43,480 nucleotides of DNA, taken from a virus. The translations under genes and the position numbers were made by a program. Of the stretch, positions 5,258 through 9,323 are shown piece by piece. Where the stretch lies: positions 1-43,480 of the IMG/VR virus record IMGVR_UViG_3300005253_000592; one strand, given 5' to 3'. Under the pieces are notes generated by a model. It was not told the origin of the DNA. It saw only the letters and a program-made list of their open reading frames with translations, and did not search any database. Numbering within the stretch: the first letter of the stretch is position 1; each line of letters starts with the position of its first letter.

Positions 5258-6219
5258 GCCTTCCCTCCAATCTCATCAATGGCCTTTCTGATTTCGGCTG
5301 CGGCCGCTTCCCTCTCGGGGTCGGTGATCTCTTCCAGCTTCTCCTCGGGCCACCGCTCCCTTGCCCATTCTTTCAGCTTTTCGGCATCCTCGGTCGAGAG
5401 TTTTGAACATCGGCGTTCTACCTCGCTCTCGTAGTAAAATGAGTCGTGCCTAAGCTCTGCCTTGGCGTCTGAGAGGGTAATGGTCTTGGGCTGCTGGTCT
5501 TGGTGTTCGTCTTCCCATCTCTTTTCGTTGAGCCAAGTCGTTGGGTTCGGTATGATCCCCCGTTGCCATTGGTCGGTCTTCTTGTCCTTTTCCAGGGCTT
5601 CCAGGATCGTCTCTATGGGAACGCCCCTAGTCTTGGTCCACGAACTCTTGGCCTTGGCCTTTCCTTTCTTCCTTGGGTAGGCGTTCCAGAACTTGTCAAA
5701 GTTTCCTGAAGACGCGCCATGTGTGTCTTTAGGTAAAGTAGAGTAAGGCAAAGTCTTGACGGTATTTCCCGGTTCTTCCGGGCAATTCCGGGTAATTCCC
5801 GGTAGAATCTCCAAGTCATTGTTATCAGGGGAGTAACGAGGGACCACTCCTGGGGTTCTTCGGTCCTCTCTAATCCAGCCCGATTGGGCGCCATCGAAGT
5901 CCCAAATCTCAAAGTAGGGCTTATTTGAGAAAATGTAGAGTGTTCCGAGCCCAACTTCGTGCATTGCTTGGAGAGATTGGGTGAACATTTCCTCCTTGCG
6001 GGAACTTCCCGGCAATACCAGCGCCTTGAATCCAAAGTTGTTAGCCGGAATGATGCCCCACTCGTCGGCGTGGGCCTGCATCATGCAGTAGATGAGTTGG
6101 AAGAATTCCCCTTTTTGATAACGCCCAAGAGCATTAAACTTCTCCGACGTGGATAGCCCCGAGCCGAGGAGCCGCCGGCGCTTGTGCTTTGATTTCTTCC
6201 GGGGTTGCTTGTCGGTCAT
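5254..6219 (-). CDS. phage replication protein (initiator/helicase-loader type)
   Basis: 321 residues; the start MTDKQPR (6219) overlaps the methyltransferase stop as ATGA. Residues ~25-110 look like a winged-helix N-terminal domain (EKFNALGRYQKGEFFQLIYC, SLQAMHEVGLGTLYI), followed by a polar linker and a C-terminal module with FDKFWNAYPRKKGKAKAKSSW and IPNPTTWLNEKRWEDE, a signature I know from many phage replication/DnaD-like and helicase-loader proteins. It probably binds origin DNA or loads the host replicative helicase. No separate phage helicase or polymerase gene is visible, so replication would depend on the host. Confidence 0.7.
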   Translation of the reverse strand: MTDKQPRKKSKHKRRRLLGSGLSTSEKFNALGRYQKGEFFQLIYCMMQAHADEWGIIPANNFGFKALVLPGSSRKEEMFTQSLQAMHEVGLGTLYIFSNKPYFEIWDFDGAQSGWIREDRRTPGVVPRYSPDNNDLEILPGITRNCPEEPGNTVKTLPYSTLPKDTHGASSGNFDKFWNAYPRKKGKAKAKSSWTKTRGVPIETILEALEKDKKTDQWQRGIIPNPTTWLNEKRWEDEHQDQQPKTITLSDAKAELRHDSFYYESEVERRCSKLSTEDAEKLKEWARERWPEEKLEEITDPEREAAAAEIRKAIDEIGGKA

Positions 6220-6953
6220 TGCTCCAACCACTCCAAAATCATGTATCCCACGGCCTCTGCGACTTGCGGCACTACGGCATTTCCAAGGGCTCTAAGGCGG
6301 TCCACCCGATTGGAAACCCCATCAGATATTCGGTTATCCTTACCGGCGGGTACACAAACCGATAATTCAAGTTCCACCAGTCTCTCAAATTCATCCCCTG
6401 TAAACGCTCGTGCCGTATTCTCCCTGAGCCCTTCCCATCGCAAGCCACAGGCCGCGGCACTATTGGCGACGATAAATATTCTCTCGCCAAGAAAATGGGC
6501 ACCGAAGGCTGCTGCTGGAATACTGTCCCACTCCGCACCATACCCGCCCTCGGCCAAGTCTCCGAGAACTCGTCCATGCCCTCGAACAAGGAGCCCTGGG
6601 ACGTTCTCCAGCAGGACGATTCGGGGTCGTACCTCGCAAATGATTCGGAGGATTTCGGGCCATATCCATCGCTCGTCTTCTTCTCCGAGCCGCTTGCCGG
6701 CGGTTGAGACTGGCTGACAGGGGAAGCCCGAAGCGATGCAATCCACGACGCCACGCCAAGGGTTGCCGTCGAATGTCTTGATGTCCGTCCAGATTGGGGC
6801 ATCGCAGAGCAAACCATCCCTGATTCGACTAATCGTTGTAGCCACGCACCAAGGGTCTTGCTCAACGTAGCAGACAGTTTTAAAGTCGCCAGTTCGACGA
6901 AGGCCGAGCTCGATTCCCCCGATGCCGGAACATAGACCCAGGACACGGATCAT
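6216..6953 (-). CDS. DNA cytosine-C5 methyltransferase
   Basis: 245 residues with the ordered motifs of C5-cytosine methyltransferases: motif I LGLCSGIGG (SAM binding, ~residues 5-13), motif IV GFPCQPVS with the catalytic cysteine (~76-83), motif VI ENVPG (~116-120), motif VIII GERIFIV, and motifs IX/X RLRALGNAVVPQVAEAVG at the end. The target-recognition region between VIII and IX is only about 60 residues, short for the family. It probably methylates phage DNA against host restriction. ATG 6953 follows AGGGAG and overlaps the upstream stop. A second long frame runs through the same DNA (6272-6946). Confidence 0.93.
   Translation of the reverse strand: MIRVLGLCSGIGGIELGLRRTGDFKTVCYVEQDPWCVATTISRIRDGLLCDAPIWTDIKTFDGNPWRGVVDCIASGFPCQPVSTAGKRLGEEDERWIWPEILRIICEVRPRIVLLENVPGLLVRGHGRVLGDLAEGGYGAEWDSIPAAAFGAHFLGERIFIVANSAAACGLRWEGLRENTARAFTGDEFERLVELELSVCVPAGKDNRISDGVSNRVDRLRALGNAVVPQVAEAVGYMILEWLEQ
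6272..6946 (-). other. long overlapping reading frame inside the methyltransferase gene
   Basis: A 224-codon open frame (GTG at 6946) on the same strand in another phase, covering over 90% of the methyltransferase gene. Its product contains ESFARYDPESSCWRTSQ, ETWPRAGMVRSGT and ITEYLMGFPIGWTALEPLE. From memory these resemble proteins annotated on their own in other phages, often near methyltransferases. The resemblance may simply follow from conservation of the methyltransferase frame, whose motifs IV-VI encode these residues out of phase. Translation is not shown; there is no good ribosome site. Confidence 0.35.
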
Positions 6954-7384
6954 CAATCTCCCTTGCCCCTCAACCCCTTAATTTCTTCCCGCAGATAGCG
7001 CAGCTCGTCGGCTATGGCATCAAATAAATTATTAAGAATACAGTTATTATACGCCGCCGCCCCCTCGTATCTGGCGTCGGGGCAATCGGTATCATCTGTC
7101 GGCAACTTAAACTCCGGCCTCGGTGCGGGCTTATCTTCAATAAATAAGTCAGGGTCAACCCTAAACCCTCCAGCTCCTTCGAGGGGGACACAATTCATAA
7201 GCGTAGAAGTAAAGTAGCCACCGCCCTCATAAGTGCAAGTATTACAATCACACTTCCATCTCTGCCCCACCTTCATCTCGGGCTGGGCATCTGCCCTCGC
7301 ACACAGCCCGACGACGAGGATCACCGCCGCTACCACGACGCCGAGAAGCCACTGCTCCTCCCACCATTTTCTGAGACGGTTCAT
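6953..7384 (-). CDS. secreted or membrane-anchored cysteine-rich protein
   Basis: 143 residues. A basic N-terminus followed by a hydrophobic stretch (LLGVVVAAVILVVGLCARADA, ~12-33) reads as a signal peptide with possible cleavage after ADA, or as an anchor. The rest has cysteines in pairs (CDCNTCTY, MNC, DCPD, NNC) and a helical C-terminus (LFDAIADELRYLREEIKGL). Start ATG 7384 forms TGATG with the HerA-like gene. Function unknown; export to the periplasm is inferred. Confidence 0.7.
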   Translation of the reverse strand: MNRLRKWWEEQWLLGVVVAAVILVVGLCARADAQPEMKVGQRWKCDCNTCTYEGGGYFTSTLMNCVPLEGAGGFRVDPDLFIEDKPAPRPEFKLPTDDTDCPDARYEGAAAYNNCILNNLFDAIADELRYLREEIKGLRGKGD

Positions 7385-9123
7385 CACAGGAACAACGCCT
7401 CGCCCATGCAGACCATGTTGCCGTTGACCTCGGCGGCGCCATTCCTCGCCAAGTCTCTCAAATAGGTGTTGGAGGTTCCGCTATTGGTAAGCTCGGCCCG
7501 TTCAAACAATTCTTCTCTGGAAATCCCTTGCGGGTGAATCTCAATCAGTATATCCAGCATCCTTCTGGCCCCAGCCCGGAAGATGCCCCTAAACGACTCA
7601 ATGTTTTCTTCCTTTGTCATGGGAGCTAACGGGCTGCTCAACCCCAAGATTCCAAGTCCGCTGTCCGTTATCAGAACCCAGCCCTCGCTGTCTTCTTGGA
7701 TGAGCCCATTGCCTAAGAGCTCACGATAATAAGTCTCGGACGTACCGCTTTTCCTTAGCTTGGCCATGAGCCTTAGCTGGGACCTAGTGGTGGTCAAGGG
7801 ATAGCGACGAGCCAGGACTTCAAGCATGCGCCTTGCCCCTGCCCTTGGCCTGTAGCCGCCGTCGGATTCCGCAGGCTCAGACCTAGGTGGAGTGGAGATC
7901 GTCGCTTGTGGGGCATCCTCGCGCCTAGGTTTTGGCTGATATTGGGGCCTTGGAGGAACATGGGCCTTTTGGCGATTGAGGACGGAGCCAATCAGCCCTC
8001 CCAGGCCGTCATTGCTGGCTCTAAGCTCGTTGACGGACGCCTCGACAACGCCCCCGACTTCTACAAGCCTTTCCCCAACCTCTACAAGTAACGCCCTTTC
8101 TTCTGCTGTTAGCATGGGCACTTCTACAAGTTGGGGCTCCGGTGCTGGAGTTGGAGCTTTTGTTAGCTGTTTTTGTGAATGAAGCTCTCGCTCTAAATCT
8201 TTGATGCGCCGTTTCAATTCCTTCGGGTCTGTCTCTTTCACCCGTTCTATCGTCTCGGCCATCTGCTCTTTGATGGCCCCAAGGTCAATGTCGGCTAACG
8301 TGGCTGGTCGGCGCCGGCGCTTGGCTCCCGTGGGGGTGGCGGCGCTGTCGAAGGTCTTGCGCCTGTATATCTGGAACTGGTCCGTTATCTCCATCCAGGG
8401 GCTCCAGACCCACGCCTCGCCCGGCTTGAGGCCCGACAAGGACGCCAGGATCTCCTGTTTCTGGCCGTGGTAGACAACCCACCCCTCGATGGCTTTCCGG
8501 TCCTGGGGGGACGTGATTCGGTGGACAATGAGCGTCTCGATCTGAGTCAGCACGTCCTTGTTTATGACGGCGGAGCGTTGGGTTATCATCGTGACCCCGA
8601 GCCCCTTCTTCCGGCCCCGCCTCACCACGTTCTGCCACGCCCGAAGCAACCTTGCGCTCTCCCTCATGGGTTTCTGAGGTATGTAGTCGTCGGCCTCCTC
8701 GAGGATAAGGTGGAGCGGGTCTTTGTTGCGCTTCAAGATATTCACGGCAAAGTCGGTGAGGAATCGCCGCTTGCCGCCTTCCGAGAACTCGGAAACGTCC
8801 AGCACGCAGGAGAGCCGTTCCTTCGCTATGAGCTCCGCTATCATCTGGCCGGCGGTTTCTTCCAGGGGCACGTCTCCCCTGTCCCCCCCGAAGATGGGGA
8901 TGGGTAGCCCCGGCCCCTTGCCGTCTGCCGCCGATCTAAGCCCCCACCAGGAGCCTTCGGGGTCTATGACCACGAAGGGCAGTCCAGCCTCATACATCCC
9001 CTCGGCCATGACCGCCGCCGTGTTCGACTTCCCCCCGCCCCGGACGGCCAATAACCCGAAGGTCTGAGTCACCGCTTCCAGCGGCAGCGTCAGCCCCTTG
9101 GCGATTCGGATTCCCCTGGTCAC
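7384..9123 (-). CDS. HerA/FtsK-like ATPase with duplicated C-terminal domain
   Basis: 579 residues from GTG 9123 (GTGA overlap with the gene upstream). The N-terminal half is a P-loop ATPase: Walker A AVRGGGKSNT (~26-35), an IDPEGSWWGL segment, Walker B LHLILEEADDY (~138-148) and MITQRSAVINKDVLTQ, as in HerA-type DNA translocases of archaea and phages. A charged coiled segment (~290-330) leads to two tandem copies of a winged-helix-like unit, RAGARRML...SGTSETYYRELL and RAGARRML...SGTSNTYLRDLA, near residues 435-500 and 520-575. It probably moves or remodels DNA during recombination or replication. No NurA partner is adjacent; the Cas4-like nuclease at 14930 could be a partner. Confidence 0.8.
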   Translation of the reverse strand: MTRGIRIAKGLTLPLEAVTQTFGLLAVRGGGKSNTAAVMAEGMYEAGLPFVVIDPEGSWWGLRSAADGKGPGLPIPIFGGDRGDVPLEETAGQMIAELIAKERLSCVLDVSEFSEGGKRRFLTDFAVNILKRNKDPLHLILEEADDYIPQKPMRESARLLRAWQNVVRRGRKKGLGVTMITQRSAVINKDVLTQIETLIVHRITSPQDRKAIEGWVVYHGQKQEILASLSGLKPGEAWVWSPWMEITDQFQIYRRKTFDSAATPTGAKRRRRPATLADIDLGAIKEQMAETIERVKETDPKELKRRIKDLERELHSQKQLTKAPTPAPEPQLVEVPMLTAEERALLVEVGERLVEVGGVVEASVNELRASNDGLGGLIGSVLNRQKAHVPPRPQYQPKPRREDAPQATISTPPRSEPAESDGGYRPRAGARRMLEVLARRYPLTTTRSQLRLMAKLRKSGTSETYYRELLGNGLIQEDSEGWVLITDSGLGILGLSSPLAPMTKEENIESFRGIFRAGARRMLDILIEIHPQGISREELFERAELTNSGTSNTYLRDLARNGAAEVNGNMVCMGEALFL

Positions 9124-9323
9124 TCGCTCTCCACCTTCTTCCTGACCGCGCACACCGTCGTCACCATTGAGTAGCTATCCACTTCCTCGGCCCACCTGTC
9201 ACGGAGCCACTGCACCATGTCCTCAAGCGCCTCCTCGGATGAAAGCACGTCTTTTTCGGAGCCGTTATCATAAGGCGGGGTGAACACTACACCGATGACT
9301 AGCTCAACGGTTTTGGTGGTCAT
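9120..9323 (-). CDS. 67-aa hypothetical protein
   Basis: Small acidic protein (MTTKTVELVIGVVFTPPYD...), predicted alpha/beta with a helical middle (SSEEALEDMVQWLRDRW). Joined to the HerA-like gene by a GTGA overlap, so probably co-translated. Not recognised. Confidence 0.65.
   Translation of the reverse strand: MTTKTVELVIGVVFTPPYDNGSEKDVLSSEEALEDMVQWLRDRWAEEVDSYSMVTTVCAVRKKVESE

What the first reader, a model, noticed from the sequence alone, without database searches (positions are those of the whole stretch)
6272..6946. A second family-like protein encoded out of frame within the methyltransferase gene
A 224-codon frame spans most of the C5-methyltransferase gene. Its product carries blocks (WRTSQ, ETWPRAGMVRSGT, LMGFPIGWTALE) that I recall from proteins annotated separately in other phages. 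Either these annotated proteins are shadows of methyltransferase genes, or both frames are used and one was created by overprinting. Either answer matters for annotation.
Basis: partly seen in the sequence, partly recalled or inferred. Interest (0 to 1): 0.6.

Follow-up and report, generated by a model that had tools for sequence, protein, structure and literature searches.

The report
Methyltransferase subunit nested in methyltransferase gene
The second reading frame inside this phage's DNA-methyltransferase gene is not an annotation ghost: it very probably makes the second subunit of the same enzyme, carrying a motif that the first subunit lacks, so one stretch of DNA encodes both halves and genome annotations list only one of them.

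Summary
The 224-codon frame (6272-6946, minus strand) lies in the +1 frame of a C5-methyltransferase gene (6216-6953). It is a conserved coding frame, not a shadow. In 110 related loci the +1 frame holds 222 stops where synonymous-codon shuffles expect 624. The +2 frame (1547 vs 1363), flanking genes (1204 vs 1196) and 29 single-chain C5-methyltransferases (522 vs 524) show no depletion. All 80 loci found in bacterial and archaeal genomes with the +1 protein alone are nested in such a methyltransferase; no free-standing copy was found.

The frame-0 product (alpha) has motifs I-VIII and X but no motif IX. The +1 product (beta) ends in a motif-IX-like block, EYLMGFPIGWT, the part conserved most beyond what alpha imposes. 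Its C-terminal part is homologous to the recognition region and motif IX of single-chain actinophage methyltransferases.

Best reading: an alpha/beta split C5-methyltransferase of the M.EcoHK31I kind, with beta nested in alpha. That kind is known. What I found no report of is its breadth, the shared start signal (NTGAATG), motifs changing frame, and the annotation gap: of 26 annotated records, 20 list alpha, 6 beta, none both. Expression and activity are untested.

The parts
6216..6953 (-). alpha: C5-methyltransferase subunit, 245 aa from ATG 6953 (246 aa from TTG 6956); motifs I-VIII and X, no motif IX
   Evidence: PF00145 E 2.6e-34, profile positions 2-161 of 324 only; family profile matches M.HhaI residues 12-176; model aligns with the large domain of M.HaeIII/M.HhaI, residues 172-222 mostly at pLDDT below 50
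6272..6946 (-). beta: nested +1-frame protein, 224 aa, GTG start; PHROG 1008 family
6299..6331 (-). beta motif-IX-like block EYLMGFPIGWT (beta residues 206-216)
   Evidence: strongest beta-specific conservation; aligned with motif IX through single-chain relatives; 0 of 20,000 shuffles
6264..6296 (-). alpha motif X (LRALGNAVVPQ)
   Evidence: sequence; invariant G-N in the family alignment; topology count
6714..6728 (-). alpha motif IV (GFPCQ, catalytic cysteine)
   Evidence: sequence; invariant in the family alignment
6958..6964 (-). AAGGGAG, probable ribosome-binding site: 4 nt before alpha ATG, 11 nt before beta GTG
   Evidence: sequence; SD-like signal in 107 of 124 relatives

Best explanation
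The locus encodes a two-subunit C5-cytosine DNA methyltransferase from overlapping frames. Alpha (frame 0) binds S-adenosylmethionine and carries the catalytic cysteine (motifs I-VIII) and motif X. Beta (frame +1, nested) carries motif IX at its C-terminus and probably the variable target-recognition segment. From one ribosome-binding site, ribosomes start either at the alpha codon or at the beta codon a few bases downstream, giving both proteins from one message. Alpha and beta assemble into one enzyme that methylates phage DNA, plausibly to evade host restriction. Shown here: both frames are conserved as coding sequence, alpha lacks motif IX, beta has a matching block, and beta is always found with alpha. 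Inferred: translation of both, physical assembly, methylation, target recognition by beta, and the biological role.
For: Stop depletion only in +1 (222 vs 624), also with one locus per cluster (88 vs 187 in 30 clusters), absent in flanking genes and in 29 single-chain methyltransferases, none of which has a beta. Beta sequence conserved beyond alpha's demands. Beta start conserved as ATG in 112 of 124 loci, GTG in 12, behind a stop in 105 and with an NTG alpha start 4 nt upstream in 102. 80 of 80 loci found with beta alone are nested in an alpha. Alpha ends at motif VIII and then has motif X only, whereas single-chain enzymes match PF00145 to position 322. Beta's C-terminal half is homologous to the recognition region and motif IX of single-chain actinophage enzymes (E 2.8e-14), which align with canonical motifs IX-X (E 5e-5). 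A known enzyme has this division: M.EcoHK31I, motifs I-VIII and X in one chain, IX in the other (PMC3404938).
Against: No expression, interaction or activity data. Beta compared directly with canonical motif IX gives only E 0.024. Beta alone is not modelled well (pLDDT 61) and has no fold match. The window's alpha has an altered motif VIII, so this copy might be weak. In M.EcoHK31I the recognition domain was predicted in the larger chain, not in the smaller.
Confidence: 0.85

Rival explanations
1. Shadow frame: only the methyltransferase is made, and the +1 similarity is a by-product of its conserved protein sequence and codon usage.
For: All relatives lie inside methyltransferase genes. Part of the +1 similarity does come from alpha: shuffled genes still score 46 bits on average against the beta profile.
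Against: Calibrated shuffle tests keep alpha and its codon usage and still fall far short; controls are flat; beta start codon and ribosome-binding context are conserved.
Confidence: 0.03
2. Programmed +1 frameshifting: beta is not started on its own; ribosomes begin in alpha and shift into the +1 frame, making a catalytic-recognition fusion.
For: Single-chain relatives have the same parts in one frame; in some relatives (L240, L245, L346) the +1 frame carries motifs IX and X downstream of an alpha that ends after motif VIII.
Against: In the window motif X stays in alpha's frame, so one shift would lose it. The N-terminal part of beta and its start codon, useless after a shift, are conserved beyond alpha's demands. 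No slippery site was searched for.
Confidence: 0.05
3. Beta is a real protein with its own function (for example a regulator or anti-defence protein) unrelated to the methyltransferase activity, kept by overlap only.
For: No relative of known function in Pfam, NCBIfam or solved structures; the N-terminal half has no known relatives.
Against: Never found without alpha; alpha lacks motif IX and beta ends in a matching block; the C-terminal half of beta occurs fused to the catalytic part in other phages.
Confidence: 0.07

Closest known systems
M.EcoHK31I (YGGCCR), two-polypeptide C5-methyltransferase (Lee, Kam and Shaw 1995, Nucleic Acids Res 23:103; cited in PMC3404938)
   Same: Motifs I-VIII and X in the larger chain, IX in the smaller. 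From memory, not checked (paper not held): the smaller chain is encoded in another frame inside the gene of the larger.
   Different: Phage-encoded; the recognition-like segment seems to lie in beta rather than alpha; target unknown; sequence homology to M.EcoHK31I not tested because its sequence was not at hand.
M.AquI (CYCGRG), two-polypeptide C5-methyltransferase
   Same: Split C5-methyltransferase.
   Different: Its smaller chain carries IX and X; here X is in alpha. Some relatives (L026, L240, L245) do have X in the +1 protein, but overlapping.
M.HhaI / M.HaeIII and other single-chain C5-methyltransferases
   Same: Alpha matches their large domain.
   Different: They carry recognition domain and motif IX in the same frame; 29 single-chain controls have no nested +1 frame.
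Mycobacterium phage ShiLan type methyltransferase (L010, L224)
   Same: C-terminal region PTPxAxD ... EWMMGWPAGWV is homologous to beta's C-terminal half.
   Different: Single chain with motif X in the same frame; only the N-terminal half of a beta remains readable in +1.
PHROG 1008 ('DNA methyltransferase')
   Different: Its label implies a catalytic protein; by this analysis it holds the nested subunit, which has no catalytic motifs.

Membership tests
M.EcoHK31I-type split C5-methyltransferase | Larger chain has motifs I-VIII and X but not IX | tested here: met
M.EcoHK31I-type split C5-methyltransferase | Smaller chain carries motif IX | tested here: met
   Indirect: through single-chain relatives, E 2.8e-14 then E 5e-5; direct comparison weak, E 0.024, but at motif IX; block under strongest beta-specific conservation
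M.EcoHK31I-type split C5-methyltransferase | Smaller chain encoded in an alternative frame within the larger gene (my recollection of the type member) | tested here: met
   the feature itself could not be checked in the original paper
M.EcoHK31I-type split C5-methyltransferase | Predicted recognition domain in the larger chain | tested here: inconclusive
   Alpha has only about 45 low-confidence residues between VIII and X in the window; the recognition-like segment of relatives is in beta's frame
M.EcoHK31I-type split C5-methyltransferase | Both polypeptides required for methylation | not testable with these tools
   needs expression and assay
M.EcoHK31I-type split C5-methyltransferase | Sequence homology to M.EcoHK31I subunits; YGGCCR target | not tested
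   reference sequence not in the collections searched by name; target not predictable
C5-cytosine DNA methyltransferase (alpha) | SAM-binding motif I, PCQ (IV) and ENV (VI) motifs, large-domain fold | tested here: met
C5-cytosine DNA methyltransferase (alpha) | Motif VIII arginines | tested here: inconclusive
   Window reads HFLGERIF where relatives read PHxRxRIW; the second Arg is kept, the first is Gly
M.AquI-type split C5-methyltransferase | Smaller chain carries motifs IX and X | tested here: not met
   In the window X is in alpha; relatives such as L026, L240 and L245 do have X in the +1 protein

The most novel reading that the evidence does not exclude
Frame-nested split C5-methyltransferases are not a curiosity of one restriction system but an old, widespread class in phages, prophages and plasmids, in which motifs IX and X and the recognition region move between two frames and sometimes rejoin in one chain; it would be among the longest and most widely distributed same-strand overlapping gene pairs.
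Probability: 0.7. Interest if true: 0.7.

Novelty: new member of a known kind. Interest (0 to 1): 0.6.

Why it matters
Annotation pipelines allow one gene per stretch, so records list alpha or beta, never both. Expressing the listed gene alone would probably give an inactive enzyme and a false 'orphan' methyltransferase. The family also offers a large natural data set for two questions: how one DNA sequence supports two long conserved proteins, and how recognition parts of methyltransferases are exchanged.

Tried and rejected
Shadow-only reading: rejected by codon-shuffle tests with calibrated controls. Free-standing beta: sought with the beta profile in genome contigs; all 80 loci kept are nested. 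Structure of beta alone: poor model, no fold match. Beta profile against solved structures: no relative. Pfam and NCBIfam: no family for beta. Substitution pattern against flanking genes: only one pair (L058/L060) gave well-matched controls; the pooled ratio is uninformative because most flanking genes are saturated. Alignment A1 was too divergent for a collection scan. Lactobacillus methyltransferase L194 was fetched as a single-chain control but proved nested too, so controls came from whole genomes instead. Literature: no paper found that describes this in phages.

Full report
WHAT IS THERE. The window is a phage: terminase, portal-like and replication initiation proteins are recognisable. 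On the minus strand, ORF 6216-6956 is a C5-cytosine methyltransferase (Pfam PF00145, E 2.6e-34, but only profile positions 2-161 of 324). ORF 6272-6946 lies in its +1 frame. I call the first alpha and the second beta.

IS BETA CODING? Alpha and beta profiles were applied to 110 loci, 80 of them collected by alpha similarity alone. In every locus a beta-like frame lies in +1 of an alpha. The alpha profile was built from genes already known to hold a beta, and the 80 are its nearest relatives, so this set is one part of the methyltransferase family and not all of it. Shuffling synonymous codons within each gene keeps the alpha protein and its codon usage. Against that null, +1 stops are 222 observed vs 624 expected, while +2 shows no deficit (1547 vs 1363). 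One locus per cluster gives 88 vs 187 (30 clusters at 60% identity) and 136 vs 318 (55 clusters at 70%). Controls: 101 flanking genes, 1204 vs 1196; 29 single-chain C5-methyltransferases from bacterial genomes, 522 vs 524, none with a beta.

Beyond staying open, the beta sequence is conserved. Held-out loci score above all 20 of their own shuffles in 94 of 96 cases. At 70-80% alpha identity, fourfold-degenerate third bases of alpha are 65% identical vs 31% in shuffles, and beta identity is 54% vs 32%. Shared ancestry inflates this in close pairs, but an excess persists at 40-50% alpha identity (42% vs 27%). In A+T-rich contigs the gene is richer in G+C than its neighbours (0.496 vs 0.401, 24 loci), as expected if a second frame must stay open. 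For the window itself the beta score is 155.7 bits vs at most 115 in 2000 shuffles.

HOW IS BETA STARTED? In the 124 loci where a beta start fits the expected pattern near its N-terminus, the start is ATG in 112 and GTG in 12. A stop codon directly precedes it in 105, an NTG start for alpha lies 4 nt upstream in 102 (ATG 48, GTG 37, TTG 17), and a purine-rich ribosome-binding signal is present in 107. The pattern NTGAATG suggests one ribosome-binding site serving two starts. In several loci (for example L098, L100, L101, L105) the codon at that alpha position is TTA, while the beta ATG is kept; alpha must then start elsewhere. In the window the signal AAGGGAG stands 4 nt before alpha's ATG and 11 nt before beta's GTG.

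WHAT IS BETA? Residue by residue, constraint on beta that alpha does not explain peaks at its C-terminus, EWLMG[FW]PxGWTDL, followed by blocks around WKTxQxSL and ETWPxxGxMR. Alpha lacks what this region resembles. The alpha profile matches M.HhaI from residue 12 to 176, and the alpha model aligns with the large domain of M.HaeIII and M.HhaI, with residues 172-222 mostly below pLDDT 50. Single-chain enzymes match PF00145 to position 322. In actinophages such as ShiLan, a PTPxAxD region followed by EWMMGWPAGWV and motif X continues in frame from the catalytic part; in close relatives (L240, L241, L245, L250) the same sequence is the +1 protein. Beta's C-terminal half aligns with that region at E 2.8e-14, and that region aligns with canonical motifs IX-X at E 5e-5. 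Beta against canonical enzymes directly gives only E 0.024, but at motif IX exactly. The identification of motif IX therefore rests mainly on this bridge.

ARRANGEMENTS. By a strict pattern, 82 of 110 loci have motif IX in beta and X in alpha; many of the rest miss the pattern by one residue. True exceptions exist: X in beta's frame (L026, L090 and the actinophage type; L066 by pattern only), both in alpha's frame (L010, L012, L224), and a group L346-L358 whose +1 protein carries canonical IX and X. The split is thus variable. The C-terminal half of beta is probably old methyltransferase sequence, and its N-terminal half is overprinted on the catalytic domain; the direction was not tested by a tree.

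DISTRIBUTION AND ANNOTATION. A genome scan with beta gave 80 loci from many bacterial phyla and two archaeal genome bins, all nested +1 in an alpha (133 vs 355 stops). In 299 genomes of one bacterial phylum, 17 match PHROG 1008; none of 14 well-known control genomes does. Of 26 annotated phage and plasmid records examined, 20 annotate alpha, 6 annotate beta (two of these as a DNA methyltransferase) and none annotates both.

COMPARISON WITH WHAT IS KNOWN. M.EcoHK31I is a two-polypeptide C5-methyltransferase with motifs I-VIII and X in one chain and IX in the other; M.AquI splits with IX and X in the small chain (PMC3404938). That the small subunit of M.EcoHK31I is encoded in another frame inside the large one is my recollection; the paper is not held. 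The window fits the M.EcoHK31I arrangement in the features I could test, except that the placement of the recognition domain is inconclusive. Homology to M.EcoHK31I was not tested. I file it as a new member of a known kind by arrangement, with activity, partner requirement and target unknown.

LIMITS. Everything is comparative sequence analysis. Loci are related, so per-locus probabilities are not independent. The window's alpha departs from consensus in motif VIII (nearly invariant His and Arg read Phe and Gly), so this enzyme could be weak or decaying although both frames remain open.

Noticed in passing
window 6480-6497 (alpha residues 153-158): Motif VIII of the window's alpha reads HFLGER where relatives read PHxRxR; a nearly invariant His and the first Arg are lost. 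The closest relative L001 keeps PHLRER.
   Followed up: partly
window 6951-6955: The stop of the upstream 144-aa gene (6953-7387) overlaps alpha's ATG (TGATG), suggesting translational coupling.
   Followed up: no
L026, L066, L090, L240, L241, L245, L250: Relatives in which motif X lies in the +1 protein and alpha ends after motif VIII: an M.AquI-like division, but with overlapping frames (L066 by pattern only).
   Followed up: partly
L346-L358: Phage group whose alpha ends just after motif VIII and whose +1 ORF (about 288 aa) carries canonical motif IX (TERESWRLQGIPDEY) and X (AGNGLTVNIA).
   Followed up: partly
L010, L012, L224: Single-chain methyltransferases with PTP repeats, EWMMGWPAGW and motif X in one frame, while the N-terminal half of a beta is still readable in +1.
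   Followed up: partly
L011 1858-3734 (Gordonia phage McKinley): Catalytic part in an unannotated frame, gp4 in +1 (beta N-terminal half), gp5 in +2 (recognition and C-terminal region): three frames across one methyltransferase.
   Followed up: partly
L122, L174, L175: Alpha frame interrupted while beta stays intact; possible sequencing errors, decay or recoding.
   Followed up: no
L107 (Leptospira plasmid pLiSL34), L075: C-terminal frameshifts that put the end of beta in alpha's frame and truncate beta.
   Followed up: no
window 7384-9153: HerA-like ATPase gene (PF01935, PF05872) close to the methyltransferase, also weakly like a terminase large subunit (PHROG 2666).
   Followed up: no
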